Shown piece after piece: positions 1 to 30,221 of a stretch of DNA of 64,000 bases; within the stretch, counting starts at the first letter, position 1; every line of letters starts with the position of its first letter. The DNA lies in contig JASANE010010120.1 in NCBI GenBank assembly GCA_030248225.1, positions 1 through 64,000 of the forward strand, read 5' to 3'. A program made the position numbers and the translations under genes. Under the pieces are notes generated by a model. It made no database searches, had not been told where the DNA came from, and saw only the letters and a program-made list of their open reading frames with translations. The stretch comes from Trileptium ribeirensis. Taxonomy: Eukaryota; Nematoda; Enoplea; Enoplida; Thoracostomopsidae.

Positions 1-2362
1 TTTCCCGTAGAGAGCAACAATTGATGCTTTACCTTAAGAGATCGTAATACTAATGTGGCAGGATTGCACCAGAACGATAAAGCTATAATTATTTACAAGT
101 TGTCTGAAAATAGATAAAAGATATAACACATTAGCATTCAGAATCTAGCAGTCTTTTGAAACAGGCGACGTCTACGCTAACCATTTAACCAATAGTACCA
201 CATACGTGCCGAATGATTAAGTGCTAGAAAAACATGGTGTGGCCCTGCCACCCTAAGTACTTTGCAACGTGGCCTGCACCATCGAGTCATATATAAGTAA
301 CTCCAAGTAACCTACAAGTAAAGTAAAGAAAAACAACACCATCAGCTCCTGCTGGCTTGGTAACACACAAAATCATGTAGTAGAAATTTTATTACTTGAC
401 GTTAGCTGGAAATTTTTAAACATTATATAGGTACACTATTAGCACATAACAAAAGATTATATAGCAAAAACTTAACAAGAAAACCCGTGGCCTTATGCAC
501 CAGGTATAACATGGATAGCATATTTCTCACATAGTGATGTCTTAGCCTCGATCCAAAAGCTTCGCACTGCGTAACGAATTTACCTGTAACAATTTTTATA
601 AATTTTTGGATTTTTAACCAGTTTGGGACAATAGCGTGCGATCATGCATTATAGGATACATGTACCTTAAATCGTACTACCTGAAGTGTTTGTGTGTTTC
701 GTGAACCTGAAAAACTAAAGAATTTTATGTGTTAGTGTTAGGGACAAGTGACACAGGATTTTCCCTAAATAGAACGTGGGTGTTGGCCCATAGCTGCCAA
801 GCCCCCTAAGCGTGTAATTTCCCCGGCCTGTGCATTGGACCACCCCTAGGCGAGGCTTACGCTAAGACATAGTTCCGACAACTATGTCCCACCCTAAGGA
901 AGGTTTACAACGTCACAGCCTTCGACGATAGAGCAGCCCATGGTGTGGCAACCTGGGGTCCAACGGGTGGTAAAAGGTGCCGGAAAGGTAGAAAGACCAA
1001 TCCCACCCAGAGGTTCCCGTTTAAGGAATGGGCTGCCCCTTTTTCTGGTCTGCCTTATAACCCGGCTAGGGCTTACTATGCCTAGCACACCCGCCTCCTC
1101 GGCAGGGTCCAGAAATGCAGGTAACCTCCTGCAAAGTCACCGTGAGTGAACCTACATGTACTATATAATATGCGTGTGTAGGAAAAAGGAAAACATGAAT
1201 ACCGGGCGTGTGAGATGGGGCAACTATTAGGTAGTTCTAACAGGATGAGGCTAGCAACCCTATAGACCGTTTTAATTCGTGCGGACTGCTAAGTTCCTTG
1301 GGAATTTCCATCAACGTAACTTTGAAATTAGAAAAAAACAAAAACAAAAACAAAAAAACGTAGAAAAGGTCCAAATGCCAAAGCAGAAAAGAAACTTCGA
1401 ATCGAGCAGTCCTTAACAATACACGTTATATCCTCAATAAAAGCAATGTCGCAACTCCACCGAAGAAAAACGCTGCTTAACACGTAGAAGAAAATAATGA
1501 TAATAATAAAAAAAACACTAATAATACACCAAAACAAAATTCGCATCAGCAACATGCGTCGAATAACAAAACATAGTAATAATAATCTGCAACACATGTA
1601 CGTCGACTAATAATGATGAAACTAACAAAGTAGCTAGCCGTACACAACAGTAACCAATATTAGCTAACTAATTTTATTCATTAAACTTATCTTAGTATTA
1701 TTATTATATATTAAGAAATTCGGATGTCAGTTTTAGATTAAGAAAAAGGGTTATTTAGGGACAAATTAAAGGTATCCGTAGGAATTAAGTAGATTTTCGG
1801 GTGAGGAAAGTGTGGGTAGGACCCCAATGGATAATCCGAGAGGTTTCGCCACCATATAAAGTTGATAAAAGTCGAGTATTGGTATATTTGATCTTAGGAT
1901 AAAAATAGTGAAAATTAGGGAATTTTAAACCCGATGAAAATGGAATAATGGTGCGATTAAAGTGTTTTCAGCATAGGGAGAAGATAAAATGTAATCCCGC
2001 AATAAGGAAAAGTTGTACCCAAGTGGGGAAAATTTTGTAAATTTGATAGCAAAGTGAAAATATTGTAGTAAGTAAAATAGAGTGTCAAATCAGAGCATAG
2101 GGACATTATACTCCGACATAGGAGTAAATAGTGGGTTCACCCGAGTGGGGATAAGTGTGAACGTACCCATTATGGACTATAACCCACCCCACCGGGAGGA
2201 AATAATAATAAAACCAAGAGAAAGGTGTTATTTGAGTAAAAATGAATATCCCCCAGGGAAGGATAAGTAAGTTGACTATAATTTTGGAAATTTGGTCAAA
2301 ACCTATGAAATATTGTCTAGGAGGGAGGGAAATACAAGGTTGGACCTGCCCAAAAGTTGACA
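1..2362 (-). repeat. 3' LTR of element 1 (outer end cut by window start)
   Basis: Matches 17905-20267 base for base over long stretches. Differences seen are a 7-base loss in an A/C-rich run near 1331-1357, one A in a run near 1510, two substitutions near 1897-1902, one each near 2113, 2297 and 2323, and a ~10-base indel near 2257. Similarity stops after 2362, at the TG/CA end. The short ORFs inside are identical in both LTRs and show no domain; I do not consider them genes. Confidence 0.92.
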
Positions 2363-3720: not shown

Positions 3721-5430
3721 TTATTGATGATTGTAGACGCCCCATTCAGCATTTGGCATTTCCGGTAGCGGTTGATCCAGAGAGGCGAATATACCGAAAT
3801 CGTTCTGATTGATACGCCGAATCTGCTCAGGTAGATAACTAATCGGCCGCAAATAGTGTTCAGGCGCCAAATAAGGTGGAGCGCCGAAGCTCGATAAACA
3901 AGATCGATATCCCGCGTATAGACGACGCATACGATTGTCCGCACCATCGACCTGTGCCGCAAAAAAACGATGAAATTGACGTTGATGTTGCTGCCAGAAT
4001 GGCTCAATGCGCGCACGTCGACGATTAGCAGTATTCAGCCATTGATTTCGCTCCGGATGAGTATGCATCACGGGTTCCTGCAAAAGACGAATTTGAATGT
4101 CCAGCTTCTCTAGTGTGCTACGAACCCTTTCCAAAGCATCCCCGAGTTGTGGTCCGAATCGTTCATACCAAGCTCGAACCTTTCGTCTAATGCGAGATTT
4201 ATACACGTTTTTCGGATGTTGCTCTAACGCCGTCATCTGTCGATTCATTTCGCTGAGATTGAACAGCAATAAGATTGGAAACGGGGTCCGATGCATGACT
4301 TTGGTAATGTTCAATGTTTTACTATAAAAATTAAACCGAATTTGACTCGCGAGCGCTTGTAGAACGACTTGGTAGATTTGATTCGCTCCCGGTTTCGTTA
4401 GTTTCGTTTGGAAATATTGAAACGCTGTAAGCCCTACTCGCTCGATAACCTCGATGTAGTCGATAGTTCTGACTGGTTGTGGCAACTCCGCTGCCAATTG
4501 GAAGAAACGCACTTGAAGCTGATTGAAGTACTCCCTTTCCGTCCGTATAAAAGCATTTGGAGTATACCTTGGTCGCCACTGTATTAACTCCGGTAGCAGT
4601 GGTTGATACCGTAATTCTTCTGCGCCAGGTTGTTCTGTATAATCCGATAACCAGATAGCATCAGAGGCTGCAACGGTGACCATATCAGTACCCGAATCCT
4701 CTTCCGGCAATGCAAATCCTCGTATTTCCTCCTCCGGTGATGAACAAGGCGCTGACGTCGGAGAACCGTAGAAACTATAGACACGTTGTTGTGTCCCTGG
4801 TTCGGCCACCCTTTGAGGAATTGTGATTTTTCCGAGGTGAGTTCGCAACGTCGATGCTGGTCGTTGTGTAGTGAACGGTTGCGTACCTCGAGAAACTTGC
4901 GAATCTTCGCGGATAGTCGTTCGTCGTTCCCGTTTTCCGAATTCCACACGTGCAAGAATCCGCTTAGCTCGTTCCACCGGATCAGTTGTTTTACCGACTA
5001 CCATTATGTCCGGACGTGCTGGCTGTTTGCCTGAAGCGGACGGAGCACCGACAGCATCTTCATCCGAAGTAGAAGTCGATTCATCCCGAGATTCAGAGGA
5101 AGACTGACGTCGTCGCTTGACTTCCCTAGATCGTTTTTGCTTTTCAGCTCCGGTAACAGCTGAAATTTCATCGCACTGCACCATCATGTCTGCAGTGACA
5201 GGTCGCGCCTGTAGAGTAAAAATTTGCGTTGCTTGATCTTGAATACGCTCTTCCAGCGTCGTGATGCGAGCGCGATACTGATATATACTCTCTTGCATTG
5301 TTTCGTTTTGACGCTGCAAACGCGTCATTCCTTGTTGAGAGTGCGTATTCTCCGTTTGTGAATCGCGCAAAGCTTGTTCCAGTTCCGCGTTACGTCGCTC
5401 ATTTACAGCATTGACTTGCTGTAGCTGTAC
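3721..5430 (-). CDS. Element 1 last ORF: coiled-coil protein of unknown function (C-terminal part of the post-pol reading frame)
   Basis: Open frame of about 570 codons on the minus strand ending with TGA/TAA-type termination at 3721, in the same frame as the pieces at 5431-5814, 5815-6102 and 6103-6696. It directly follows an in-frame TAA (5433-5431) and has no convincing ATG of its own, so it is probably the C-terminal part of a longer protein. The first ~80 residues are Gln/Glu/Arg-rich with heptad spacing (coiled coil); a Lys/Arg/Ser-rich linker (KQKRSREVKRRRQSSSESRD) could be a nuclear localisation signal; the last ~270 residues are helical, rich in Gln, Arg and aromatic residues, and match no family I recognise. 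No signal peptide or membrane segment, so it does not look like an envelope protein. Composition matches the element's other ORFs. Confidence 0.7.
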   Translation of the reverse strand, partial: VQLQQVNAVNERRNAELEQALRDSQTENTHSQQGMTRLQRQNETMQESIYQYRARITTLEERIQDQATQIFTLQARPVTADMMVQCDEISAVTGAEKQKRSREVKRRRQSSSESRDESTSTSDEDAVGAPSASGKQPARPDIMVVGKTTDPVERAKRILARVEFGKRERRTTIREDSQVSRGTQPFTTQRPASTLRTHLGKITIPQRVAEPGTQQRVYSFYGSPTSAPCSSPEEEIRGFALPEEDSGTDMVTVAASDAIWLSDYTEQPGAEELRYQPLLPELIQWRPRYTPNAFIRTEREYFNQLQVRFFQLAAELPQPVRTIDYIEVIERVGLTAFQYFQTKLTKPGANQIYQVVLQALASQIRFNFYSKTLNITKVMHRTPFPILLLFNLSEMNRQMTALEQHPKNVYKSRIRRKVRAWYERFGPQLGDALERVRSTLEKLDIQIRLLQEPVMHTHPERNQWLNTANRRRARIEPFWQQHQRQFHRFFAAQVDGADNRMRRLYAGYRSCLSSFGAPPYLAPEHYLRPISYLPEQIRRINQNDFGIFASLDQPLPEMPNAEWGVYNHQ

Positions 5431-5814: not shown

Positions 5815-6102
5815 TCAGATATCACGCAAAATGTGCTTCGCTTTACTCCATACCCATCGCCCGAAAACACAATGCCCAATCGCTGTTGATCGAGAATGGC
5901 ATCCATGTTCTGTGATATGCCCACGACAAAAATTCAACCGACAATGTGCACACGTGAAAATAGACATTCGTTGGCAAGTGACCGTTTGACATCTTATATT
6001 GGTTTCCACCGGCCACGTCGGCTGCCGTCTAATAACGAACAAAGGTTCGTATTGACCATGATCGCCAATAAAGTCCTGTAACCCACTTCGCTGGAAATTC
6101 AT
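5815..6102 (-). pseudogene. Element 1 Cys/His-rich segment 1
   Basis: A 95-codon stretch in the same frame as 6103-6696, 5431-5814 and 3721-5430, beginning at ATG just after a TAG. It holds a compact Cys/His cluster: C-x4-C, then FTCAHCRLNFCRGH (C-x2-C-x4-C-x2-H), x3-H-x-C. This spacing resembles small zinc-binding modules of the B-box/AN1/UBP type, but I cannot assign a family. An alternative frame (6238-6029) looks coding just upstream, so the transition near 6080 is probably a frameshift in one long post-pol protein. Confidence 0.55.
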
Positions 6103-6696
6103 CTAAATATTCGATGACTGGCCAACAACGGTATCTCCCATCGGAACTTGCCCGGACGAATAAGTAGTTGGTGCACAGAGTGGCATTATCCAATCCGAAG
6201 TTGTAGTGAGGCACGTTGTTGCCGTCGACTGTGTCCAAGTATGCACAGGTGGTGGAACTGTAAACGCCAAAGTAGTACCCAATGGTCCCACTATCGAAGG
6301 CACTAATGTAGTAACATCAGCCGAAGGTAACGACGGTTGTTGCACCGATATCGTTAAGGGTTCCCAGATTGGGTTCAATTGCTCGGGTTGAATGCTAGTT
6401 GCTACCACCGTTTCCGTAACCGCGACAGCGTGGCCGGATGCGGAGCTAGTCGCCGGTTCCAAATACGTTTGGTAATCTGCAGCCAACGTCTCTGTCTCAA
6501 ACCACCGATCAATGTAAGCTGGTGAATTCATTGCGCTGACTGACGTCGGTGTCGTATCTTTTGCCGAAATGATGTGGCCCATCTGTTGTGATGGTGGCAC
6601 CATTTGAGGTATTGGCTGACTGAGTAACCTCAGCTTCCGTAATCTGCTCCGTAATACGTACTGCCGCAATAGCGTCTTGTAATTGTTCAGCCCCAA
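6103..6696 (-). pseudogene. Element 1 Ser/Thr/Pro-rich linker segment
   Basis: About 197 codons in the frame shared with the downstream Cys/His-rich and coiled-coil segments; it overlaps the 3' end of the exonuclease ORF in a different frame. The exonuclease ORF's low-complexity tail and this segment have the same Ser/Thr/Pro/Val composition, and good coding character appears to pass from one frame to the other near 6590. I infer that exonuclease, linker, zinc-like modules and coiled coil once formed one polyprotein of about 1500 residues. From ~6240 to 6080 the third frame (ORF 6238-6029, with residues GRYRCWPVIEYLDEFP) looks better. No recognisable domain. Confidence 0.5.
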
Positions 6697-8344
6697 CGAT
6701 CGTAGTTCCCATTGTATCAGCCAGCGGCGACTGAACGGTCACATCGCTTGACTGCACTGTCACTGAGGGTACAACCGTCGACGTGGGAGTAACTGATGGC
6801 TCCGATAAATTCGGTTGGGTTGCCGCAGATGTACTTTCCTCGACCGACTCGTCTTGCCCTATCACCTCGTCCACAATCTCCACATCGGGACTAGATTCCT
6901 CCGAAAAAGTTTGCTGTTGCGCACGTTGCTGCACTCGTTCTCGTTGTTCTTCTACATGATAGGCATAATCCGATAAAATTGTCGGTACTACGCCAAAACG
7001 TCGTCGCTGATCCTCGATTACTCCGTATCGTAGCGATGCATTGATGATATTGCTTTTCTCTTTCGTTAAGCGAACACCGTGCAGGTTGAAATCAGGTCGT
7101 GGCAACTCCCAAGCATTCCGATATTTAGCAGCTACGGCGCTCCAACGTATCTGTTCTGAAGTATCCAACGCCGAATACATATATTTGATGTCCAGTTCAT
7201 CTGGATCACGGACATAAATCATCGGATAGGATTGATGAAAATTTAAATCCTTGCAGGTCCGTTGACATAGCTCGAAAAATTTTGGCATAAAACCTGCTTC
7301 CACATCTGGATACTGTTTCGCTTTTTGAAAACTGAATTCGATTTGTGGCATTTTCAAATAATCCATCGGCAAAAATGTCCATATCAAATCTTTCATCCAT
7401 TCCTGCACATCTTCGACTGTTCTTATTCCTCCATCCATAGTTGAACGTTCTTCGGCTGCCATGATCGCTAAATCAGGTATTAAGGCATCCATTGCAGCGT
7501 ATACTATGAATTCACGATACGATACTCGTTTTCGTGGAGCCGTCTGCCGATATTCCTTAACTTTCCTTTTGTATTCCTTAGGTGGTGGCGGAAAATAGTT
7601 GTAGATAGTTTCACCAAACGATCGCATTGCTATTTCTCCCCAGGGAGTCATTGCAGGTCGTTCCTGGTACAGCGTTTGTCGAAACTGTTCATCCAGTCGA
7701 TTGCTTTTCGGCGCATACTGCTCGTGTTCATACTCCATCTTCAAAGCTTGAAGATCGAGCCAATGATCCGCTTTCAGTGGTAGCTTCCCACGCAGCACTT
7801 CGAGACGTGACAAATAATGCCGATCGCAATGGCCAGCCCACGTAATAATATACAGGGTTTCGTCTTCCAGAAACTGACGCAAGGAGTGCGATATGGTAAG
7901 GTAAAAAGCAATCAAGTCGATGAAGACAACTAAGCCTTCCATCGTAGCCAACTGGATTGTGGCAGCAAAACCCTGCTTTACTCCGAGTCGAGTCATATTT
8001 CGGACGTTAAACCAAGACTTGGATAAAAACGGTGCCACACGTCCGTAACGCGAACGTCGTGGATAACGTGTTGCCAATGTTACTCCGATACCGAGATCAT
8101 CCTGGCTTAGCAAATCCCGTGCGTTTTCATCCTTCAACCACTGTGGTATTTGGAACGCTTCACTGTCTAGACCGAAGATATTCCAGCTAGATTCCCTCAG
8201 CAATGCCAATGCCATGTCCAACTGAGGTTGAGTGCGTACACAGATGACCATCCGTGCCAAACCAAGTCGACGATAGAACAGTCGAGCGTACGTAATAATC
8301 TCGATTTGATTTTTGGTGCGCTCTTTGATAGTTGTATCCACCAA
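6509..8344 (-). CDS. Element 1 ORF3: DEDDy-type 3'-5' exonuclease (RNase D/WRN-like)
   Basis: 611 residues. The exonuclease domain spans about residues 30-295 and has all signature motifs: Exo I in IFGLDSEAF (D60, E62), Exo II in ITWAGHCDRHYL (D174) after a typical IQLAT...FIDL strand, a following WLDLQAL segment, and Exo III in VYAAMDALIPDL (Y282, D286; the Y-x3-D form that defines DEDDy enzymes). Family knowledge: two-metal-ion 3'-5' hydrolysis of RNA or single-stranded DNA. The region 300-470 is helical and unassigned; 470-611 is Gln/Ser/Thr/Glu-rich and runs into a frameshift. The start taken here is TTG; the frame is open to 8373, with no ATG before residue 32, and begins just after an AG that could be a splice acceptor. 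It lies where retroviruses carry env. Analogous ORF3s are described in bdelloid rotifer LTR and Athena elements. Confidence 0.85.
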   Translation of the reverse strand: MVDTTIKERTKNQIEIITYARLFYRRLGLARMVICVRTQPQLDMALALLRESSWNIFGLDSEAFQIPQWLKDENARDLLSQDDLGIGVTLATRYPRRSRYGRVAPFLSKSWFNVRNMTRLGVKQGFAATIQLATMEGLVVFIDLIAFYLTISHSLRQFLEDETLYIITWAGHCDRHYLSRLEVLRGKLPLKADHWLDLQALKMEYEHEQYAPKSNRLDEQFRQTLYQERPAMTPWGEIAMRSFGETIYNYFPPPPKEYKRKVKEYRQTAPRKRVSYREFIVYAAMDALIPDLAIMAAEERSTMDGGIRTVEDVQEWMKDLIWTFLPMDYLKMPQIEFSFQKAKQYPDVEAGFMPKFFELCQRTCKDLNFHQSYPMIYVRDPDELDIKYMYSALDTSEQIRWSAVAAKYRNAWELPRPDFNLHGVRLTKEKSNIINASLRYGVIEDQRRRFGVVPTILSDYAYHVEEQRERVQQRAQQQTFSEESSPDVEIVDEVIGQDESVEESTSAATQPNLSEPSVTPTSTVVPSVTVQSSDVTVQSPLADTMGTTIVGAEQLQDAIAAVRITEQITEAEVTQSANTSNGATITTDGPHHFGKRYDTDVSQRNEFTSLH

Positions 8345-8373
8345 CTCCGCCGATCTAGAACAAATATACGCCT

Positions 8374-8933: not shown

Positions 8934-9130
8934 CTACAATTGTGTTCCCACACTACACTCAGCACAAAACCATTGTTCGGATACCGTTGGTAATTTATTA
9001 AGCCCTACACAATCTAAATGAAACCAATGAGGTTCGGAATGAGCCCCATCGCAAGCTACCCATTCATTTAGACGCCGTGGTTTATTTTTACCAGGTACTT
9101 TAGTGCATTAACTTGATGACAAACCCTACA
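8934..9130 (-). CDS. PHD finger at the C terminus of element 1 integrase (frame-shifted)
   Basis: Minus strand. The first pair of zinc ligands (LCRVCHQ, codons 9130-9119) lies in the frame of the 9307-9068 ORF; a shift near 9100 moves to the frame that encodes RRLNEWVACDGAHSE, PHWFHLDCVGL, and finally WFCAEC, ending at TAG 8934. The order C-x2-C, CD, WFH-x2-CVGL, W-x-C-x2-C is the PHD-finger signature, with the invariant Trp before the His. The fourth ligand, normally Cys, is absent; a His (in GAH or PH) may replace it. PHD fingers read histone H3 tails, so this is probably a chromatin tether in the place where chromoviruses have a chromodomain. A decayed PHD also follows the integrase of element 2. 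Confidence 0.78.
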
Positions 9131-12300: not shown

Positions 12301-12437
12301 CCTTTTGGAACAATTAATGTTGAATTAGTGGTATTGACGATAGGCACCCAGAGTTGACCACTAGATTGGACAACTCCTACAGATCTCGCGACCAGCACCA
12401 TTTGGAAAATGGCCGCGCCATCTTCTGTTGCTTCCAT
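9300..12437 (-). CDS. pol: Element 1 pol: reverse transcriptase, RNase H and integrase
   Basis: 1045 residues. Residues ~165-370: RT, with LP-type fingers, motif A D257 (STMDLQSGYWQI), and motif C FIDD (D321, D322) in place of the more usual Y-x-DD. Residues ~465-590: RNase H with D473, E515, D540, D587. Residues ~730-780: zinc-binding H738, H744, C774, C777. Residues ~800-905: integrase core with D806, D866 and E902, exactly 35 residues between the last two (DD35E). All catalytic residues are present, so the core looks functional. The ATG overlaps the protease stop as TAATG, but the frame is open upstream to about 12510, so pol is likely made by a frameshift or reinitiation from protease. 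It ends out of frame after the A7 run; see the tail entries. Confidence 0.95.
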   Translation of the reverse strand: MEATEDGAAIFQMVLVARSVGVVQSSGQLWVPIVNTTNSTLIVPKGLVCVRIEPIANYNIYPPDEEIEEIGQVQTSDIELGSVPEPMQRHWMNPEQLQQYLEAQNNRKDQLEPIPGVDLSSSVLDDVEKRYLQLLMDEHRDIFAKSNEELGDCSVALHTINTGSAPPIRQKAYPAPHAMRQEIERQIGQMKATGAIQPSNSPWASPVVMVHKKDGTLRFCIDYRKVNALTVKDAFPLPRTNEQLESLRGTRYFSTMDLQSGYWQIRMDEESKPKTAFVTHEGLYEWERMPFGLTNAPATFQRTMQTVLLGLLGISCLCFIDDIIVFSANFWQHFFYLHQVWQRLRDTGLKVKGKKCHFAQEKVQFLGHVVSRDGISTDPSKIEKVQKCTKPTSVKEVRSFLGLTNYYRRFVPNYATVAAPLYETTKERPRGVKFSSGWTEACDAAFEQLKEALTTTPILAYPDYTKPFVLFTDASDYGVGNVLEQEDENGRLRVIAYGGQKFSPAQMHYSIPEKECLAIVRAFKEYRPYFIGNYVTVYTDHQCLTYILNGRRNLDGLTGRLFRWTIKLQEYSFEVKYMPGLKLTNADGMSRPPLLQISKEDIEKAYSPAAYERDDAVAYVVDAEVVDQKDQQARNRDVVNLRHIVDQEWPWPQAQILREQQLDPEIEEIRAFKLAKGEVAGLPNERYRWLCRNQGDFFLRDQLLFHLHWRYRHQRRAVAFTQLVVPNVFRQELLQRYHEDFAGHLAWERTYPLLAKCYYWQTMAADVHLFIRDCIVCNRFNPGGSRKVPLHPNAIPYAPWETVGVDIVGPLPATENGNKYIISWIDYLTKWPEAFPVPDTTAKSIVATFIQGVSSRHGHPKTVIVDRGAGFMAETHQKALSSRGVKLNFVVADHHQSNGLVERWNQTLIRVLRKIADENPDCWDEYVPLVCMAYRITPNVATGETPYRMNYGRDMDLAEEPRRLQVHSDSVQKYVHGLYTELQAIWTECKDQLQRTQEQYCKQYDRRVSANRADIVEGSLVFLLEKNCSWTGISSKIRTSIPYFV

Positions 12438-13033
12438 TACAACCTGGGTGCCAGACGGAAAACCTGTGGATCCGCCTGTATCTCCAGTACAGCTACCGTT
12501 CGTCCGTCAATTTCTTGTTGCTTGGCAGTAAATCCACAATTCCGATTCACCTTTTGGTAATCGGCAGCCCTGAAATTCCACGTAAATACCTCTATCGGTA
12601 TACCCGCAATAGAGACATCGGGTCCCGGATAAGCGATTGTAACCTGATATTGTTCGAAGAATTGATGATCCAAAATAACTGGATATTTCAGTGCCTTGAC
12701 TACATAAAAAGGATGAAATTCCACCGTAGTCAAACCCACATTGACCGGTATTCGTGCAATTCCCACGCATGGTAATTCGCTTCCATTAATTGCACGAAGT
12801 CGCTTTGCACCACTAACACATGGCCAAGCATTCCAAGACGTTTCGTATAAGTCTGCATTAACTAAGCTAACGTCTGCGCCGGTATCGACAAATGCCCGAG
12901 CAATAACGCCATCCAACACTACATCGATAAAGACTCGTCCAGTTTGCCATCGCTCTTCCAGCGGCTGCGCAATAACGATCCGATGATCATCGCTGGATTC
13001 CAACGAATTTGCTTGGGTAATTATTCCCAACAT
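12437..13033 (-). CDS. Element 1 aspartic protease
   Basis: 198 residues with the retropepsin signature AFVDTGADVSLVN (catalytic D50) and a later hydrophobic strand with VILDHQFF, as in gypsy proteases. The enzyme would act as a dimer to cut Gag and Pol. It overlaps the Gag zinc-knuckle ORF at its start by 47 bases and pol at its end by the TAATG sequence, so three consecutive genes lie in different frames. Family proteases are ~100-130 residues; the extra length is an N-terminal linker and a C-terminal extension towards RT. Confidence 0.88.
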   Translation of the reverse strand: MLGIITQANSLESSDDHRIVIAQPLEERWQTGRVFIDVVLDGVIARAFVDTGADVSLVNADLYETSWNAWPCVSGAKRLRAINGSELPCVGIARIPVNVGLTTVEFHPFYVVKALKYPVILDHQFFEQYQVTIAYPGPDVSIAGIPIEVFTWNFRAADYQKVNRNCGFTAKQQEIDGRTVAVLEIQADPQVFRLAPRL

Positions 13034-13769
13034 GGAAAATATCGGCTTCGATTAGACCGAAATCCCAAACCACTTCGTCATCGGTGTTTGTTCCCGTAGA
13101 TTCCACATTTGCTTCCTCATCTACGTCTACCGCATCCATCCACTCTGCGATTTCCGCTACATGTGGAACAGATCGGTCTGTCGAAACTCCAGTTCGATTT
13201 GGATCCGTAGCCTGCCCTGCCGTTGTTGTCGGTAACGAAGGACAATTAGTCGAAATATGACCAAAACCAGTACAGGCAAAACACCGTCGTCGCGTATTCA
13301 CCAATGGATTAACGCGCAAATTGGTTCCCGTACTCAACAGAGTACCGCCTCCAATGCGTTGTGGTCGTCGTATTCCTTCCGAAGCAACGTTACCATTACG
13401 TTCACTAATCCACTGTCTCTGTGCAGTTGTACTCTCCGATCCCGCATTAGCCCTCGGTGTTGTTTGTAATTTCATCTGCTCCAAGAATTGTTTCATCATT
13501 TGTTGCAATTCCGTTGTAGATGATTCATGATTCTCAGCTTCAGTGCTCTTCACCCTCGTTTCGTTCACAGTTGTTGACTGGGTAGTGACCGGAAACGTCG
13601 ATACACCTGTCGAACGAACTGGAGCCGCAGTAGCACGAGGCACAAATCCACTACGCGTGACCGTCTGTGCTACCGCTACTTGTGGATTCTCATTGTCGCT
13701 ATCTTGCGAATCGGCAGCCATTTCCATTTCAGCTGCGGAAACATCCTTCATCCTAACCGTTTTTCGCAA
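12987..13769 (-). CDS. gag: Element 1 Gag C-terminal part with CCHC zinc knuckle (nucleocapsid)
   Basis: 260 residues, mostly low-complexity (Thr/Ser/Gln-rich) with a zinc knuckle CFACTGFGHISTNC (C-x2-C-x4-H-x4-C) around residue 165, preceded by basic Arg-rich sequence (NTRRRC). This is the RNA-packaging nucleocapsid of Gag. An acidic region follows the knuckle. It lies directly upstream of protease and is separated from the capsid-like pieces by frame changes. Confidence 0.85.
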   Translation of the reverse strand: MRKTVRMKDVSAAEMEMAADSQDSDNENPQVAVAQTVTRSGFVPRATAAPVRSTGVSTFPVTTQSTTVNETRVKSTEAENHESSTTELQQMMKQFLEQMKLQTTPRANAGSESTTAQRQWISERNGNVASEGIRRPQRIGGGTLLSTGTNLRVNPLVNTRRRCFACTGFGHISTNCPSLPTTTAGQATDPNRTGVSTDRSVPHVAEIAEWMDAVDVDEEANVESTGTNTDDEVVWDFGLIEADIFHVGNNYPSKFVGIQR

Positions 13770-13987
13770 AATTCCCGGTCGAACATTTCCATCCGTTCCC
13801 TCCTCACGGGAATGCGTATCACAACGTCGTAGGAAATCATAGCGTTCCCTGCTTCGAGCAGCTCCTCCACATCATGTCGATCTCCCATCGGTTTGTATAT
13901 CTGCTCCATCCCATGACGTAAGCCTTTAGGAACGTAAAGAAGCATTCCGATAGTTATGCTGTTGTTCGATAAGCTCTTTCGTACCAT
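13748..13987 (-). pseudogene. Element 1 Gag fragment (end of capsid region)
   Basis: 80 codons in a third frame between the capsid-like piece and the nucleocapsid piece. Residues VPKGLRHGMEQI and the acidic/Arg-rich end fit the C-terminal half of a gypsy capsid, but the call rests mainly on position. It ends 21 bases inside the nucleocapsid ORF, consistent with a single-base shift there. Confidence 0.45.
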
Positions 13988-14078
13988 GTGGCTTGCAATC
14001 TTGCTTTAACGCCATAACGTTTCCTCCGACCTTGCACCTACTGGCTTTGAATCGTTCAGCCGCCCAAGATTTCGAAGA

Positions 14079-14603
14079 TCATAGACGATCCTCGTACGTA
14101 TCCTCATTCTCAGGTTCCGGTAGCGTCGACTCGACCGCTCGTAGTACGTATCTAGCTGATTCCCCAGCCATTGCTAAGGTAAATAATGTTACCTTATGCG
14201 TATCCAATCGCACATGGAAGCTACGCAACGTTCGTTCAAAACCTTCTAACCAGCCAGGAAAATCATCACCTTTGAATTTTTCCCACGGATGTCGCAACAC
14301 ATACGCCGGTATTTCTGGCATACCAGAAAAAGTCGACCAAGCCGAAGCTCGACCAGTGGCGTTCGCATCAGTCCCGCTATGTAGCTGCCTTCGTAATTGT
14401 TCTCGTGCAGCAGGTTCTTGAACTGACCTTTTTGGCCGGGTTGGCCTGCGAAAGTGCTGGACCTCGCCGCCGTCGATCGTCTTCCTCCTGCATAGTAGTA
14501 CGCAAGATATCCAATTCAGTAGGTCTGATATCCGGAACTGGTCGCCGCGTTTCCTGTTGAATTTCGCCAACCCAATCCCGATAGCGAGATTGCGTGTGTT
14601 CAC
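14079..14603 (-). pseudogene. gag: Element 1 Gag capsid-like fragment
   Basis: The useful part is the last ~85 residues: WEKFKGDDFPGWLEGFERTL and then HKVTLFTLAMAGESARYVL. This is the pattern of the retrotransposon Gag/capsid domain (an F-x-G-[DE] start, W-L-x-x-F-E helix, and a hydrophobic helix after a short linker). The N-terminal part of the open frame overlaps the previous Gag piece in another frame and is probably not translated. No natural start; reached by frameshift from 14985-14377. Confidence 0.6.
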
Positions 14604-14985
14604 ACACCGGTTCCTTCACTATCGCTTCGCTCCGTACCGGTAATCGAACGTCCCACCCGTGCAGACGAGTGATCCGCTTAATTGTGTCGGAAGACCCCAC
14701 AACCTTTTCCAACGCTTGATACAATACATTCTCAGCCTCACGAACCTCAAACTCATCTGCAGAAGAGTGCCGACTGATGACGCTGCGGTAGTGTTCGATC
14801 TCCTGGGCCAACGATTGCATACGCCGTTCCGCAGTGTCAACACCTTGACTTATTCGTTTTACCCGAGTACTGGTTTCACCTGGCTCCCTATAAACAGACT
14901 CTGCACGACTTCGAGATCGCTCAATCGCGACGCGATCTTCGGATCCCAACACATCAAGTCCCCGCTGAGGTTCATCCTGACCCAA
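14377..14985 (-). pseudogene. Element 1 Gag coiled-coil fragment
   Basis: 202 codons, strongly charged and helical (ERMRQSLAQEIEHYRSVISRH-type heptads around residues 50-100), with GWDVRLPVRSEAI later. It overlaps the N-terminal piece (14859-15509) by 127 bases in a different frame and the capsid-like piece by 227 bases. I read it as the middle of Gag, between N-terminal region and capsid. The frame changes suggest two indels. Confidence 0.5.
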
Positions 14986-15509
14986 TGGATAAGGAGGTGA
15001 ATATATGGTGTTGGTCTCACTGCACCCACTGTTCTTTCATATTCCGACCGCTCAGCAATTACAGGTTGTCTACGCCGACCTCCATTATCACTAGTATCAG
15101 TACTACTCTGTTTTGCTCCTCGCCATTTATCTGCCATTTTCCGACAATGGTCCTGAGCTCGCGTTATCTCATCATCCAGTTCCGCGAAATAACGGCGTCG
15201 TCTTGTAGTTGAAGACAATTCCGATGGAATATCTTTTTCCACACCGGGATTCGTAGCTATTACTGTGACATCTGGTTCAAGCGGGATAGGTTGCCGCCGC
15301 ACTTCTGGACGCCAGCCCGTAGAAGCTATAACTCTGGGTCGTCGTGGTATCCGAGAAGTTGTTCCGCCTCCCGTCGTAGCAGCAAACGTAAAAATAGGTG
15401 GTGCCACTGTGGAAACCATCGCCCGTTCAGTGGTTGTGGTTGATATAGTTCGTTCAACCTGGTCGTCACATTCAACAAACACACTATTTGGATCCCTATC
15501 AGATTCCAT
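14859..15509 (-). CDS. Element 1 Gag N-terminal part
   Basis: 216 residues starting at a good ATG (MESDRDPNSVFVE), the first ATG in the Gag region. Thr/Arg-rich and acidic N-terminus, an RRRRYFAELDDEITRAQDH helix, then RGAKQSSTDTSDNGGRRR. Coding character fades in the last ~50 residues, where the next frame takes over. It probably starts the Gag protein. A possible splice acceptor (GGTATCAG) lies ~12 bases before the ATG. Confidence 0.55.
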   Translation of the reverse strand: MESDRDPNSVFVECDDQVERTISTTTTERAMVSTVAPPIFTFAATTGGGTTSRIPRRPRVIASTGWRPEVRRQPIPLEPDVTVIATNPGVEKDIPSELSSTTRRRRYFAELDDEITRAQDHCRKMADKWRGAKQSSTDTSDNGGRRRQPVIAERSEYERTVGAVRPTPYIHLLIHWVRMNLSGDLMCWDPKIASRLSDLEVVQSLFIGSQVKPVLG

Positions 15510-16164: not shown

Positions 16165-17904
16165 TGCAATTTAGTAAATTTTACAACATTACTTTCTTAT
16201 TACAATATTTCCATGCAAACCACCATATATAGGTTCCTTTCCATTAAATATTAACACGAACAAATTCTATCACAGCAACGAACAAGTCGTGCTGGTAACG
16301 TGCAATAAGCAGATATAAAATTAAAAATTAACAATTACCAATAACCTTTTAGAGAATTTATTCCAGGTTAAACTACCTTTCTACCTGCCAGCAGTACTTT
16401 TACAATGAAGATGTCCAGCATCACAGTCTTTCCATATAACAAAATAGCTAACCCTGTGTCTGACAAATTGAATTCTAACCAACTTTACCAAAGTATGTGT
16501 AACCTAAACTTCGACAATGACAGGCCTCGTCATGGCCACAATGTGAGTTTATCGGCCTTCTCCGCGGCACGTTTCTTACCAAAACGTAACCGACATCTCC
16601 AATGGTGGCCAAAGGGAAAAGGGGTAGAGATATAGAGCGAGTTCGTGAGTTACCCGAAAATATAAGTAAAATCAAGAATACAGGGAATGGAGCCACCAGA
16701 GGGGATGGACCGGTCTACCAGCGGTCGGAGATACCCTTTATCACTGGATGAAAGTTGCGCGAGTTTCCGGCGGTAGACATGTCATTGTCCCGGGCAGGGA
16801 TATCAAGTTTAGGCCAATGTCTGGTGCTTGATAATGAGCTAAGCTGGATAGGCCGTGTGAACGTATATACACGAGAATAAATTGTAGTTAAACCAATTAT
16901 GCCCTGCAACCTGAACAGACCTAGGCCATTGATTGTACTAAAAAGTAAATCACTATGGGATAACAATTGTAAGTTTAGGTAAGGATAGGATTGATGAGTT
17001 CGGCATCCTTTTAGGTATGGCCTTTTCCGCATTAAGCTAAGACTAAATTGAATTTTGGTTAGCAAAACTGCATATTCGTGCTAATGCTGCCTAAACCCTG
17101 GCGAGTCCGGAGAACGTGCCGTGGGTAGTTAATTTATACTAAAAATGTTTAAATAGAATTGGTGAACTGCAAAATTTAACATGAAAATAGTGACTAACGT
17201 TATTGAATATGAACACTTAGCTCTTCAACGATTGTACCCTGGCTAGTCCGACTGACAGGCCGTGGGACATTGATAACATTTTGGAAAAGAGTAAGTTACG
17301 ACATTACGTAAAACTTTGTAAAAGTTTGAATTGTAAAACCGGATAAATTTAAGACCTGATTTAAAAAGTTTTAAAGAGAAACTGTAAAGTTAAAATGAAC
17401 AGTCCAGAAAACAACGTTTGAATATTGCGAATTAAAACAATAATTTATTTAGAGATTTCTCAAATAGTTTTGCATGGCGGTGCCGTGTCCGTTTAGACCA
17501 CACGCACCCCTAAGTTTAGAATTGACCAGAACGTGTCCGAGATCACAGGTTCTGAATGTGATACCTATAAATTTCATGCAAAATACTTTAGACAAAATGT
17601 CACTACGGCGAAGAGTCCGCATAACAGTCCCGTAGTGCGTAGTAAAAATTTTGAATAAGTTTTGGCATACTTTTTTAAAAAGTAAAATTGAAAAATTTGA
17701 ATCAGAAAATCTGTACTCAGGAATTTTATCATGGGTGGTGGAATCAAAGTGGGAGTGAACTACGTTAGTTCTGAAGGCATCCAAGCTTTATCTCAGCTCG
17801 ACAAGCGGCCAGAGTTGAGGTACAGATTGGAGCTAGAAAGGTATTTCCATAAGTTTGTTTGCTTATGGGTGCACAGTAGCGTTTTCCATTACTGAGGATA
17901 GCTA
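16165..17904 (-). other. 5' untranslated region of element 1, primer-binding site not identified
   Basis: About 1.7 kb between the 5' LTR and the leader block, with no coding potential. Two stretches near 17098 and 17229 share CCCTGG-C-AGTCCG followed by CCGTGGG. I looked for a tRNA 3'-end match ending in CCA next to the LTR and found none I trust. Since the window cuts the other LTR, the inner LTR border may lie left of 17905 inside this stretch. Confidence 0.5.
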
Positions 17905-20267
17905 TTTCCCGTAGAGAGCAACAATTGATGCTTTACCTTAAGAGATCGTAATACTAATGTGGCAGGATTGCACCAGAACGATAAAGCTATAATTATTTAC
18001 AAGTTGTCTGAAAATAGATAAAAGATATAACACATTAGCATTCAGAATCTAGCAGTCTTTTGAAACAGGCGACGTCTACGCTAACCATTTAACCAATAGT
18101 ACCACATACGTGCCGAATGATTAAGTGCTAGAAAAACATGGTGTGGCCCTGCCACCCTAAGTACTTTGCAACGTGGCCTGCACCATCGAGTCATATATAA
18201 GTAACTCCAAGTAACCTACAAGTAAAGTAAAGAAAAACAACACCATCAGCTCCTGCTGGCTTGGTAACACACAAAATCATGTAGTAGAAATTTTATTACT
18301 TGACGTTAGCTGGAAATTTTTAAACATTATATAGGTACACTATTAGCACATAACAAAAGATTATATAGCAAAAACTTAACAAGAAAACCCGTGGCCTTAT
18401 GCACCAGGTATAACATGGATAGCATATTTCTCACATAGTGATGTCTTAGCCTCGATCCAAAAGCTTCGCACTGCGTAACGAATTTACCTGTAACAATTTT
18501 TATAAATTTTTGGATTTTTAACCAGTTTGGGACAATAGCGTGCGATCATGCATTATAGGATACATGTACCTTAAATCGTACTACCTGAAGTGTTTGTGTG
18601 TTTCGTGAACCTGAAAAACTAAAGAATTTTATGTGTTAGTGTTAGGGACAAGTGACACAGGATTTTCCCTAAATAGAACGTGGGTGTTGGCCCATAGCTG
18701 CCAAGCCCCCTAAGCGTGTAATTTCCCCGGCCTGTGCATTGGACCACCCCTAGGCGAGGCTTACGCTAAGACATAGTTCCGACAACTATGTCCCACCCTA
18801 AGGAAGGTTTACAACGTCACAGCCTTCGACGATAGAGCAGCCCATGGTGTGGCAACCTGGGGTCCAACGGGTGGTAAAAGGTGCCGGAAAGGTAGAAAGA
18901 CCAATCCCACCCAGAGGTTCCCGTTTAAGGAATGGGCTGCCCCTTTTTCTGGTCTGCCTTATAACCCGGCTAGGGCTTACTATGCCTAGCACACCCGCCT
19001 CCTCGGCAGGGTCCAGAAATGCAGGTAACCTCCTGCAAAGTCACCGTGAGTGAACCTACATGTACTATATAATATGCGTGTGTAGGAAAAAGGAAAACAT
19101 GAATACCGGGCGTGTGAGATGGGGCAACTATTAGGTAGTTCTAACAGGATGAGGCTAGCAACCCTATAGACCGTTTTAATTCGTGCGGACTGCTAAGTTC
19201 CTTGGGAATTTCCATCAACGTAACTTTGAAATTAGAAAAAAACAAAAACAAAAAACGTAGAAAAGGTCCAAATGCCAAAGCAGAAAAGAAACTTCGAATC
19301 GAGCAGTCCTTAACAATACACGTTATATCCTCAATAAAAGCAATGTCGCAACTCCACCGAAGAAAAACGCTGCTTAACACGTAGAAGAAAATAATGATAA
19401 TAATAAAAAAACACTAATAATACACCAAAACAAAATTCGCATCAGCAACATGCGTCGAATAACAAAACATAGTAATAATAATCTGCAACACATGTACGTC
19501 GACTAATAATGATGAAACTAACAAAGTAGCTAGCCGTACACAACAGTAACCAATATTAGCTAACTAATTTTATTCATTAAACTTATCTTAGTATTATTAT
19601 TATATATTAAGAAATTCGGATGTCAGTTTTAGATTAAGAAAAAGGGTTATTTAGGGACAAATTAAAGGTATCCGTAGGAATTAAGTAGATTTTCGGGTGA
19701 GGAAAGTGTGGGTAGGACCCCAATGGATAATCCGAGAGGTTTCGCCACCATATAAAGTTGATAAAAGTCGAGTATTGGTATATTTGATCTTATGAGAAAA
19801 ATAGTGAAAATTAGGGAATTTTAAACCCGATGAAAATGGAATAATGGTGCGATTAAAGTGTTTTCAGCATAGGGAGAAGATAAAATGTAATCCCGCAATA
19901 AGGAAAAGTTGTACCCAAGTGGGGAAAATTTTGTAAATTTGATAGCAAAGTGAAAATATTGTAGTAAGTAAAATAGAGTGTCAAATCAGAGCATAGGGAC
20001 ATTATACCCCGACATAGGAGTAAATAGTGGGTTCACCCGAGTGGGGATAAGTGTGAACGTACCCATTATGGACTATAACCCACCCCACCGGGAGGAAATA
20101 ATAATAAAACCAAGAGAAAGGTGTTATTTGAGTAAAAATGAATATCCCCCAGGATATTAGGATAAGGATAAGTAAGTTGACTATAATTTTGGAAATTAGG
20201 TCAAAACCTATGAAATATTGTCTAGGAGTGAGGGAAATACAAGGTTGGACCTGCCCAAAAGTTGACA
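17905..20267 (-). repeat. 5' LTR of element 1
   Basis: Right-hand copy of the long terminal repeat, read on the minus strand from TGTCAAC at 20267. It should contain the element's promoter. Very long for a gypsy LTR (typical 0.2-1.5 kb). It differs from the 3' LTR only at a handful of bases plus four small indels, so the insertion is recent. The flank beginning AACTA at 20268 would be the target-site duplication; the other copy is outside the window. Confidence 0.92.
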
Positions 20268-21902: not shown

Positions 21903-22504
21903 ATGCCACTTCAGAGAACGCCACCTAGTACAACAATCGACAAAGAATCGACGACGAAACTAAAGAAAGTCCAGATGGAAGAATCATCAAGCGAAAAAGG
22001 GCAAGAAACAATGAAAAATTTGAATGTGACAAAAGAACTCGAAGATATAATTTGAGAATGCGATTCAAGATTTTGGAACCAAGAATACAACAACAATCGC
22101 AAGACAAAAGAAGGTTGCAAGAAACGTATACCGAAACGTTTCCAGAAGAAGCAAGCAACGATCGACTATTCGTAACAACAGAAGACCGCGAAAAAGAAAT
22201 ACGGGAAGCGATACAAAAACTGCAGCGACAAAAAGAAAAGCAATTGTTGCAATTTATAAAGAAGCATGCAACCCTGACCAAAGAGTTGCAGCAATTATGC
22301 CAAAATTTCGACAAAGACGAACCAGAAATTCCGCCATCACAACCAAGGAAAGAATCACAAAACACTGATGAAGATGGAGGAATCGAAATACGAAGTTTCT
22401 TCGATCTAGATCAAGTAAAAATGGTGCCGAACAACGAGAATAAATCGGAGCAAGTACAACCGATAATAATTACGATCAACGACCAAGAAGCAACCGGTGC
22501 ATAA
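21903..22504 (+). pseudogene. Element 2 Gag N-terminal region (broken)
   Basis: An ATG at 21903 opens 49 codons (MPLQRTPPSTT...) to a TGA; the coding character then continues in another frame as ORF 22052-22504. This is 150 residues of Glu/Gln/Lys-rich helical sequence with heptad spacing (REKEIREAIQKLQRQKEKQ), then an acidic tail. Coiled-coil N-terminal Gag region, similar in kind to that of element 1. The minus-strand ORFs here are shadows. Confidence 0.55.
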
Positions 22505-23258
22505 AGAAGCAGAGTTGAGATTTACAAGCAAGAACAAAAACTGAGCAAATCGACAAAAACAAACCAACAATCGGTGAATATCGCAAACAATTCGGTGCGA
22601 GTAAAAGCGATCCAACATAAACCAAGACCAACCCGACGCAAACGACGATCATTTCGGTGCAAAACCAATGTAAAATAACGGAAACCGAAACCAAGTCGAG
22701 ACAAGCGGTGATCAATTCAGTGCAAAGAAAGACCTATTCGGTGCAATCCAAACACGACTCAGTACGAACCGAGATCAAGCCGAGACAAACTACAATCAAA
22801 CCGGTACAAATAAAGAACTAAGCGGTGCACAGCAAAGCCGGTTCAACATAAAGGGTGATCAAGCCAGCATAAATTATGATCAATTCGGAGCAATTCAAAT
22901 GCAATCCAGTGCAAACCCGGCACAATTCGGTGCAAATTGCAATAAATTCGGTGCAAACAAATACCGATTTGGCATGAACCAAATGCGACACAACACAATC
23001 CGAAATCAAGTTTATACGCACCAGCAATTCAAGATCGACCCGGTGAAAGTCAAATAATGAATACATGGAAACAAGCACAGATCCCGAACGCGACAGCGAA
23101 TTTCGGCGCAATGCAAAGCGGGAATGGATACAATCAGATGTAAACTCCGTACATAACGACGAACAGCGGGACGTTTCAAACGACGAGCACATGGAACCAA
23201 GTACAAACAGCAGCAACCGGTGCAATACAAAACATAAACGACTCATACGGATACTACG
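22505..23258 (+). pseudogene. Element 2 Gag low-complexity region with TTCGGTGCAA repeats
   Basis: Between two Gag pieces lies a run with about ten variants of the decamer TTCGGTGCAA (e.g. near 22580, 22651, 22737, 22930, 22950) spaced 15-45 bases. Translated on the plus strand it gives (F/I)RCK/N-type units with several stops, then Asn/Gln/Thr-rich sequence (FGAMQSGNGYNQM). I read it as a decayed repeat array inside Gag. Confidence 0.4.
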
Positions 23259-24176: not shown

Positions 24177-24336
24177 ATGCAATGGCGACCGCAGCGATAG
24201 AAAACCGACAGATACAAGTACGTCAACCACAACAGCAACAAGTAATGCAACCGTGGACAACACCGATACAGATGATGCCAACACAAACTGACATGAATTA
24301 CCAAAGCCGATGCGACCGTACTATGGACAGATGTAA

Positions 24337-24669
24337 ATGCTACAAACGATGCAACCGGTGCAAGTACCACAACAACCAACGCAACCGCAAATGAAACGTC
24401 AACAACAACAAAGAATGCCAGTACCGGTAACAAACCAACAGCAACAGAACCGGCAAACGGCGATGAACCAAACGCCACCTAGGTGCAACAACTGCAGAAG
24501 GTTGGGTCATAGAACGGAGCAACGCGCCCCGAGAAACATGGGACAAAGTACAAAAGAAGCCCGATCGGAAAGTCAGCAACAAAGTCAAAATCGATACAGG
24601 ATCCTACCAAACCGACCGAATCAATCAAACGAAATGGCGAACAATTTACCACCAAAATATAGCGGGTAG
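24337..24669 (+). pseudogene. Element 2 nucleocapsid with degenerate zinc knuckle
   Basis: Gln/Pro-rich, then RCNNCRRLGHRTEQR: C-x2-C-x4-H-x4 with Arg where the last Cys should be. So this is a CCHC knuckle that has lost its fourth ligand. In a different frame from the capsid region. Confidence 0.6.
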
Positions 24670-24703
24670 AAAGAAAAGAGAACAAAAGATCGAGGACATA
24701 TCG

Positions 24704-26306: not shown

Positions 26307-26447
26307 GGTAACCGCACGACGATCATCATGGAGCAAGCTACCGAATTACAGCGCGAATAGCTCGAATGGCGAACAAGATTCTCGAATACGAATATACAAT
26401 CGTATATAATCCGGGATGACATCACCAAAACGTGGATTGTATGATAC

Positions 26448-30125: not shown

Positions 30126-30221
30126 CTTCAAAAGAGGAGGCGCAATAGTCGAATACTGCGAGAAAATATGCGATTCCAATAAACTGTTCGCACCAACCCG
30201 ATTGAGATATCAGGGCGGAAA

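What the first reader, a model, noticed from the sequence alone, without database searches (positions are those of the whole stretch)
6509..8373. LTR retrotransposon carrying a complete-looking DEDDy 3'-5' exonuclease in the env position
Seen: an ORF with D-x-E (IFGLDSEAF), the Exo II Asp (AGHCDRHYL) and the Y-x3-D Exo III motif (YAAMDALIPDL), downstream of an intact RT-RH-IN. Known: cellular RNase D/WRN-type enzymes trim RNA or ssDNA 3' ends, and DEDDy ORF3s are described in bdelloid rotifer LTR and Athena elements. New here is its combination with a PHD-bearing integrase, a zinc-like module and a coiled coil in a ~20 kb element outside an obvious bdelloid genome. Possible roles (inference): trimming of 3' ends during reverse transcription, proofreading, or countering host RNA defence.
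Basis: partly seen in the sequence, partly recalled or inferred. Interest (0 to 1): 0.88.

Follow-up and report, generated by a model that had tools for sequence, protein, structure and literature searches.

The report
Giant retrotransposon carrying an exonuclease-like gene
A large virus-like jumping gene in an unidentified, probably animal, genome carries an extra protein that looks like a 3'-5' nucleic-acid-trimming enzyme, and many copies keep that protein intact under strong selection, so the element probably needs it in order to spread.

Summary
The ORF is real, but the window copy is a broken piece of it. The window's own assembly (687 Mb) gave 76 match rows; 14 lie in open frames of 1,600-1,656 aa. 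The full ORF3 runs: exonuclease-like domain, S/T-rich linker, two CxxC..CxxH fingers, coiled coil, conserved C-terminal domain. It lies downstream of RT-RNase H-integrase-PHD in an estimated ~21.6-kb Ty3/gypsy-type element with ~3.7-kb LTRs, behind an acceptor-like site found in 16 of 16 copies examined.

The DEDDy assignment is probable, not proven. Pfam DNA_pol_A_exo1 matches below its cut-off (E 0.013 in the window; best trimmed relative 8.4e-5). Each catalytic residue is kept in 39-40 of 40 copies. Small-profile tests, PDB searches and two AlphaFold runs (pLDDT 33 and 36) did not confirm it.

The clearest result is selection: dN/dS of the exonuclease domain is 0.04-0.08, like adjacent integrase-PHD (0.01-0.09) and below the linker (0.25-0.34). 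Published bdelloid DEDDy ORF3s are the precedent. New here are the domain combination, no dUTPase match, canonical DEDD, and evidence of selection. Mechanism is inferred: most likely 3'-end trimming of the element's own RNA or cDNA.

The parts
1..2361 (-). 3' LTR, cut off by the end of the contig (window = C6704:1-64000)
   Evidence: 99.07% identical to 17905-20267 over 2371 aligned bases; begins TGTCAAC after a purine-rich stretch; contig coordinates
2362..2374 (-). polypurine-like tract just before the 3' LTR (GGTCCGGGGGA...)
   Evidence: read directly; inference
3724..5430 (-). ORF3, coiled-coil stretch and conserved C-terminal domain (569-codon open piece)
   Evidence: same frame as 6738-5434 with single stops between; collinear with residues 1027-1600 of the open ORF3 in L010
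5434..5814 (-). ORF3, second CxxC..CxxH finger and following stretch (open piece)
   Evidence: pattern in L010 and L016; no Pfam match
5818..6102 (-). ORF3, first CxxC..CxxH finger (AN1-like, weak)
   Evidence: zf-AN1 E 0.0027, below cut-off; E 0.011 in L010 and 0.73 in L016, where Transp_Tc5_C (0.013) scores better
6106..6738 (-). ORF3, S/T-rich linker (open piece in the next frame)
6512..8371 (-). ORF3 N-terminal open piece with the DEDDy exonuclease-like domain; D69, E71, D183, Y291, D295 (620-residue numbering; D60, E62, D174, Y282, D286 in the 611-residue numbering)
   Evidence: Pfam DNA_pol_A_exo1 E 0.013, residues 123-288 of 611 on profile 37-159; each residue kept in 39-40 of 40 fetched copies
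8355..8360 (-). candidate splice acceptor TTCTAG; exon would start at 8354
   Evidence: TT(T/C)TAG at this place in 16 of 16 copies read (window included), while the sequence before it differs between families; no transcript seen, inference
8949..9080 (-). PHD finger at the integrase C-terminus (out of frame with the integrase core in this copy)
   Evidence: PF00628 E 4.2e-6, 27.1 bits vs cut-off 24; in frame with integrase in L004, E 1.9e-5, 25.0 bits
9300..12437 (-). pol open frame: RT, RNase H, integrase zinc and core domains
   Evidence: RVT_1 3.2e-36, RT_RNaseH_2 5.8e-35, Integrase_H2C2 1.7e-15, rve 1.8e-9
12437..13033 (-). retropepsin-like protease frame (DTGAD)
   Evidence: gag-asp_proteas E 0.0025, below cut-off
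12987..15509 (-). gag-like region in several overlapping frames, one CCHC knuckle
   Evidence: zf-CCHC E 0.026, below cut-off
16545..20265 (-). 5' LTR, about 3.7 kb (inner end set by comparison with one other copy)
   Evidence: 3'-side flank of the C18677 copy (L031) matches window 16545-19086 and 19515-20140

Best explanation
A large Ty3/gypsy-type LTR retrotransposon (LTR - gag - protease - RT - RNase H - integrase - PHD - ORF3 - LTR) encodes, in place of env, a probably spliced ORF3 of 1,600-1,656 aa. Its N-terminal domain is most likely a DEDDy (RNase D/DNA_pol_A_exo1-type) 3'-5' exonuclease with a ~55-residue insertion after Exo I, followed by a linker, two zinc-finger-like modules, a coiled coil and a conserved C-terminal domain. 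The element is selected to keep it about as strongly as integrase. Proposed mechanism (inference): fingers, coiled coil and C-terminal domain bring the exonuclease to the element's own ribonucleoprotein or particle, where it trims 3' ends of the element's RNA or cDNA.
For: Shown: order of genes and LTRs; 14 of 76 match rows in open frames of 1,600-1,656 aa with no stop; dN/dS of the exonuclease domain 0.05-0.08 in the 6 within-family pairs (9 pairs computed, of 66 possible among 12 copies) and 0.04-0.06 in all 15 pairs of six family-1 loci, against 0.01-0.09 for integrase-PHD in the same 15 pairs and 0.25-0.34 for the linker; D69 40 of 40, E71 39 of 40 (one G), D183 40 of 40, Y291 40 of 40, D295 39 of 40 with one not aligned; acceptor-like site in 16 of 16. 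Supportive: DNA_pol_A_exo1 listed for 12 of 12 members scanned at E <= 1, best 0.0016, and for 8 of 9 trimmed family pieces, best 8.4e-5, 22.9 bits vs cut-off 23.6; ORF3 residue 288 and E. coli RNase D residue 157 fall on the same profile position 159, which puts Y282/D286 on the columns of Y151/D155 (RNase D residue names recalled); hydropathy over 1.6 only inside the exonuclease domain in the two full ORF3s read. Inferred: splicing, targeting, substrate, and every step of the mechanism.
Against: No DNA_pol_A_exo1 score for ORF3 reaches the cut-off; on the full 1,600-aa ORF3 of L010 the match is E 0.18; the N-terminal piece of L022 (which ends before Exo III) has none, and L025 and L043 give only 0.027 and 0.083. 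Pfam hits of similar E-value that look spurious occurred elsewhere (LprI 0.0021, DUF5798 0.0023; Top1B_N_bact 0.0012). Direct alignment to RNase D: 495 of 500 shuffles score as high. Five-block PSSM from RNase D and four other PDB chains: 139 of 2000 shuffles and 55 of 531 control windows reach ORF3's score, and the best chain misses Exo I. hhalign to the same five: probability 0.5%, score 17.4 against a maximum of 27.6 in 100 column shuffles. Two-way HMM tests do not rank ORF3 or DEDDy chains above controls (best ORF3 rank 34). No DEDDy chain among PDB hits. AlphaFold models pLDDT 32.5 and 35.8, unusable. A PF01612 search of the genome gave nine matches, none of them ORF3.
Confidence: 0.45

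Rival explanations
1. The exonuclease is a counter-defence factor: it degrades or shortens host small RNAs (piRNA/siRNA) or their precursors, as host DEDDy proteins of the mut-7/Nibbler kind trim them.
For: DEDDy-type host proteins act in small-RNA pathways (Nibbler recalled; mut-7, Maelstrom and EXD1 are discussed in PMC5408684); the host genome holds several DEDDy-type exons.
Against: dN/dS 0.04-0.08 in the domain, about as strong as integrase; an arms-race factor would be expected to change faster (inference).
Confidence: 0.15
2. The N-terminal domain has the DEDDy residues by descent but works as an RNA-binding or structural module (as proposed for Maelstrom and EXD1), and ORF3 is mainly a second structural or targeting protein.
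For: The fingers, coiled coil with its linker, and C-terminal domain are also under selection (0.07-0.09, 0.14-0.23 and 0.04-0.12); a similar-looking ORF in a second element of the window lacks the Exo I acids, though its homology to ORF3 is not established.
Against: Each catalytic residue is kept in 39-40 of 40 copies, which a dead enzyme need not do.
Confidence: 0.18
3. The N-terminal domain is not a DEDDy exonuclease at all; the motifs and the sub-threshold Pfam match are coincidence in an unknown conserved domain.
For: Sub-threshold score, failed small-profile tests, no PDB hit, no usable model.
Against: The Pfam match covers 123 of 173 profile positions and places Exo III on the right columns, and Exo I lies upstream in the right order; best trimmed E 8.4e-5. 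The weak best placement of a separate DEDDy profile also sets its Exo II Asp on D183 (-2.6 bits, not significant).
Confidence: 0.2
4. ORF3 is an env protein.
For: Position downstream of pol and acceptor-like site.
Against: In the two full ORF3s read (families 1 and 2) all 19-residue windows over 1.6 (Kyte-Doolittle) lie in the exonuclease domain, and the best in the last 400 residues is 0.82 and 1.03; no env family in Pfam.
Confidence: 0.02

Closest known systems
DEDDy ORF3 of bdelloid rotifer LTR retrotransposons Juno and Vesta (Rodriguez, Kenefick & Arkhipova 2017, PMC5408684)
   Same: LTR retrotransposon with an RNase D-like DEDDy ORF in the env position; the paper says ORF3s are typically expressed from spliced messages
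   Different: Published: LTRs 159-551 bp, dUTPase between protease and RT in Juno, Vesta and TelKA, DEDD changed to DEED, DEDDy ORFs without coiled coil; ORF3 variation mostly neutral, measured there on env-like and GDSL-like ORF3s, not on DEDDy. Here: LTR ~3.7 kb, no dUTPase match, DEDD, coiled coil plus paired fingers, 1,600-1,656 aa, purifying selection, PHD on integrase
Terminons / Athena Penelope-like elements of bdelloids (PMC5408684, PMC6431247)
   Same: Retroelement with DEDDy ORF and coiled-coil ORFs
   Different: Telomeric Penelope-type elements lacking the endonuclease; here an LTR element with integrase
Dada DNA transposons with DEDDy exonuclease domain (PMC3706591, passages seen)
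   Same: Mobile element carrying a DEDDy 3'-5' exonuclease with all four catalytic residues
   Different: DDE DNA transposon, exonuclease inside the transposase; proposed to process cleaved 3' ends
Burro giant gypsy elements of planarians (review PMC6431247, passages seen)
   Same: Very large gypsy-type element with many extra domains
   Different: Over 30 kb with LTRs, extra domains inside one huge polyprotein, dUTPase-like domain, env between gag and pol; no DEDDy mentioned for it in the passages seen

Membership tests
LTR retrotransposon, Ty3/gypsy type | Two near-identical LTRs starting TG with polypurine tract before the 3' copy | tested here: met
   99.07% over 2371; TGTCAAC start and purine-rich tract; 3' LTR cut by contig end
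LTR retrotransposon, Ty3/gypsy type | Order protease - RT - RNase H - integrase | tested here: met
   protease match below cut-off (E 0.0025)
DEDDy exonuclease (PF01612 DNA_pol_A_exo1) | Profile score above the curated cut-off of 23.6 bits | tested here: not met
   15.8 bits in the window ORF; best trimmed piece of a relative 22.9 bits
DEDDy exonuclease (PF01612 DNA_pol_A_exo1) | Four acidic residues and Tyr in order D-x-E ... D ... Y-x3-D | tested here: met
   Present in the window and each in 39-40 of 40 copies; Exo III column check against RNase D; Exo II placed by eye only
DEDDy exonuclease (PF01612 DNA_pol_A_exo1) | RNase H-like exonuclease fold | tested here: inconclusive
   AlphaFold pLDDT 32.5 and 35.8
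DEDDy exonuclease (PF01612 DNA_pol_A_exo1) | Metal-dependent 3'-5' exonuclease activity | not testable with these tools
   needs protein
Bdelloid Juno/Vesta LTR elements | dUTPase domain between protease and RT | tested here: not met
   no dUTPase match at E <= 1 in the protease and pol frames
Bdelloid Juno/Vesta LTR elements | LTR length 159-551 bp | tested here: not met
   at least 2361 bp in the window, ~3.7 kb by comparison
Bdelloid Juno/Vesta LTR elements | DEDDy ORF3 groups with bdelloid ORF3s in a tree | not tested
   no bdelloid sequence was obtained
Retroviral/errantivirus env | C-terminal transmembrane anchor | tested here: not met
   hydropathy of the two full ORF3s read, L010 and L016

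The most novel reading that the evidence does not exclude
ORF3 supplies a 3'-5' exonuclease that works with reverse transcriptase, removing wrong or blocked cDNA 3' ends and so allowing a ~21-kb reverse-transcribed genome: a retroelement counterpart of the nidovirus ExoN proofreader. No retroelement proofreading of this kind is known to me (recalled; not searched for as such).
Probability: 0.08. Interest if true: 0.9.

Novelty: new variant of a known kind. Interest (0 to 1): 0.55.

Why it matters
Enzyme-like ORFs in the env position were described in bdelloid rotifers, where it was left open whether they help the element, and where the ORF3s tested (env-like and GDSL-like) varied mostly neutrally (PMC5408684). 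Here a DEDDy-like ORF3 in a much larger element is kept open in at least 14 genomic copies and constrained about as tightly as integrase. That makes 'does the element need it' a directly testable question and offers natural open proteins for biochemistry. If the enzyme acts on cDNA it would bear on how retroelements copy very long genomes; if on small RNA, on how they evade silencing.

Tried and rejected
NCBIfam, PHROGs and PADLOC gave nothing relevant. PDB sequence searches gave no exonuclease and nothing for the finger region of L010. Alignment to RNase D, five-block PSSM, hhalign and two-way HMM tests were not significant. Fold search was not run because both models are below pLDDT 40. The idea that the second element of the window (about 22-34.7 kb, + strand) carries a homologous ORF3 was tested and not established: under three scoring schemes 31 to 176 of 1000 shuffles reach the score of one piece and 323 to 697 of 1000 that of the other; hhalign P 0.053, probability 1%. 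Host identity was not settled: no Rfam family at gathering score and no tRNA in the window, an 18S search failed (not repeated), and a search for nematode-type telomere repeats did not complete.
Full report
What is there. On the minus strand the window holds a large LTR retrotransposon. The two LTR copies match over 2,371 aligned bases at 99.07% (window 1-2362 and 17905-20267). The window begins at base 1 of its contig (C6704), so the 3' LTR is cut off. Comparison with the flanks of one other copy, on contig C18677, puts the inner end of the 5' LTR near 16545, giving an LTR of about 3.7 kb and an element of about 21.6 kb (estimate). Between them lie gag-like frames with a CCHC knuckle, a protease-like frame, and a 1,045-codon pol frame with RT, RNase H and integrase domains. 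The integrase continues into a PHD finger (window 8949-9080, E 4.2e-6), but in the window copy the tail and the finger are in different frames; in 6 of the 7 search loci L003-L009 (not L009) they are in one frame of 303-304 codons. PHD on integrase is not unique to this element: of the 120 relatives listed (7,663 passed E 1e-30), 3 carry a precomputed PHD domain (P0013, P0015, P0096), and P0006, 50% identical over 69% of the query, ends in a PHD-like stretch.

The finding itself. The reported ORF is present, with the three motifs in order. It is not a complete gene. The frame that follows it holds a linker, two CxxC..CxxH modules, a coiled-coil stretch and a C-terminal domain; relative to copies with one long open frame the window copy has at least one frame change and three in-frame stops. 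A search of the window's own assembly (687,459,628 bases, 20,229 contigs) gave 76 match rows at 60-100% identity; four copies give two rows each, so about 72 places. Only 72 of 364 first-look candidates were scored, so this is a lower bound. Of the 76 rows, 14 lie in open frames of 1,600-1,656 aa without a stop in the match, and 16 in such frames over 1,500 aa. There are at least two families, about 77% identical in the exonuclease domain.

Is it an exonuclease? For: Pfam DNA_pol_A_exo1 matches the window ORF at E 0.013, 15.8 bits, residues 123-288, and is listed for 12 of 12 members of alignment A2 at E <= 1, best 0.0016. Trimmed pieces give 0.0005 for the window and 8.4e-5, 22.9 bits, for L016 (8 of the 9 trimmed family pieces there match, L022 does not). 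E. coli RNase D cut at residue 157 ends at profile position 159, as does the ORF at residue 288, so Y282 and D286 fall on the columns of RNase D Y151 and D155 (names of those catalytic residues recalled). By eye, AGHCDRHYL lines up with RNase D AGSEDLEVF and the following WLDLQAL with LIDTQIL. Exo I lies upstream of the Pfam match, separated by an insertion of about 55 residues. In 40 copies fetched (chosen from the rows for diversity and for long or open matches, so not a random sample) D69 is kept in 40, E71 in 39 (one G), D183 in 40, Y291 in 40, D295 in 39 with one not aligned. Against: no score reaches the cut-off of 23.6; on the full 1,600-aa ORF3 of L010 the match is E 0.18; direct alignment to RNase D and small-profile and block tests do not separate ORF3 from shuffles and controls; no PDB exonuclease is found; a PF01612 search of the genome gives nine matches, none of them ORF3; and neither AlphaFold run is usable. 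Taken together I hold the DEDDy assignment at about 0.75-0.8.

Is it functional for the element? Nei-Gojobori counts on copies as encoded give, for the 6 within-family pairs of 9 pairs computed (66 are possible among the 12 copies), dN/dS of 0.05-0.08 (exonuclease domain), 0.07-0.09 (fingers), 0.04-0.12 (C-terminal domain), 0.14-0.23 (coiled coil with its linker) and 0.25-0.34 (S/T-rich linker). The other 3 pairs are between families, where dS is saturated in the exonuclease domain and over the whole gene; they are not used. In all 15 pairs of six family-1 loci the exonuclease domain gives 0.04-0.06 and integrase-PHD 0.01-0.09. The protein is therefore selected during the spread of the element about as strongly as integrase. 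The copies compared are related by descent and were picked partly for open frames, so these are not independent samples. An acceptor-like TT(T/C)TAG stands just before the conserved start of ORF3 in 16 of 16 copies read, while the sequence before it differs between families; ORF3 is probably made from a spliced message (inference; no transcript seen). No membrane anchor is seen in the two full ORF3s: every 19-residue window over 1.6 lies in the exonuclease domain.

How it most likely works. Inferred from anatomy: ORF3 is carried to the element's ribonucleoprotein or particle by its fingers, coiled coil and C-terminal domain, and its exonuclease trims 3' ends of element RNA or cDNA. Constraint like that on integrase speaks for a step of the replication cycle and against a fast-evolving counter-defence role, without excluding it. 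A proofreading role in copying a ~21-kb genome is the boldest reading not excluded; published DEDDy elements of bdelloids have LTRs of 159-551 bp, so a very long element does not seem to be a condition for having the domain.

What is known. The library of open papers was searched with eight answered searches. PMC5408684 (abstract, introduction, methods, results and discussion read) describes DEDDy ORF3s in bdelloid Juno and Vesta elements and in Athena/Terminon elements, with LTRs of 159-551 bp, dUTPase in Juno, Vesta and TelKA, DEDD changed to DEED, no coiled coil in DEDDy ORFs, and mostly neutral ORF3 variation (measured there on env-like and GDSL-like ORF3s, not on DEDDy). PMC6431247 (passages), PMC5718144 (passages), PMC6338049 (passages) and PMC3706591 (passages) were seen in part; other papers only as listings. 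In these searches I met no LTR element with a DEDDy ORF3 outside bdelloids; PMC6338049 cites a further 2017 work beside the bdelloid one for chromodomain and DnaQ-like accessory domains (Ustyantsev et al.) that I did not see. The present element shares the idea (DEDDy ORF3) and differs in LTR length, absence of a dUTPase match, canonical DEDD, added finger and coiled-coil parts, PHD-integrase and measured selection. I therefore file it as a new variant of a known kind. It was not placed in a tree with bdelloid sequences because none was obtained.

Host. The assembly is eukaryotic in its features; the exons found by PF01612 resemble RRP6/EXOSC10, mut-7/EXD2 and EXD1-type proteins (labels by eye, recalled), which fits an animal. 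The species was not identified, so 'outside bdelloids' rests on genome size (687 Mb against 218 Mb for the A. vaga assembly) and on the element's differences, and is likely but unproven.

Noticed in passing
window 22000-34700, + strand: A second, decayed gypsy-type element with gag-like (Retrotrans_gag E 0.0014, below cut-off), RNase H, integrase and a partial PHD (E 0.01), followed by a long ORF3-like region. The piece 29592-30122 has 154 match rows in the genome, with open frames of at most 417 aa in the rows listed; its RNase D-like look (TIQTSDGELGLIDI...NIILWND) comes without the Exo I acids, so it may be a dead paralogue. Homology to the finding's ORF3 not established.
   Followed up: partly
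P0013 (protein): A related pol polyprotein (38% identity) with a PHD finger and, after it, a domain annotated PF08719 (ribA/ribD-fused, NADAR; name recalled): another enzyme-like capture in a PHD-integrase polyprotein.
   Followed up: no
L038 and L040 (loci on C2404 and C18171): Two PF01612-type host genes whose Exo III reads Y-V-A-A-K and Y-V-A-K-E instead of Y-x3-D, so probably inactive, EXD1-like (by eye).
   Followed up: no
L030/L031 and L012 (contig C18677): A copy whose LTRs are only 87-93% identical in the aligned pieces still has an open 1,600-aa ORF3; LTR age and ORF state do not go together, perhaps through recombination.
   Followed up: no
window 52892-53656 and 56841-57644, + strand: Two similar open stretches (shared VDIPQ.CRKIIT..GL.DPKL.EL.RNVKAFNRN), perhaps exons of a duplicated host gene; no Pfam match at E <= 0.1.
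   Followed up: partly
window 28420-29028, 49937-50546, 63410-63682: Copies of one dispersed repeat (82-87% identical, both orientations); the first lies inside the second element.
   Followed up: no
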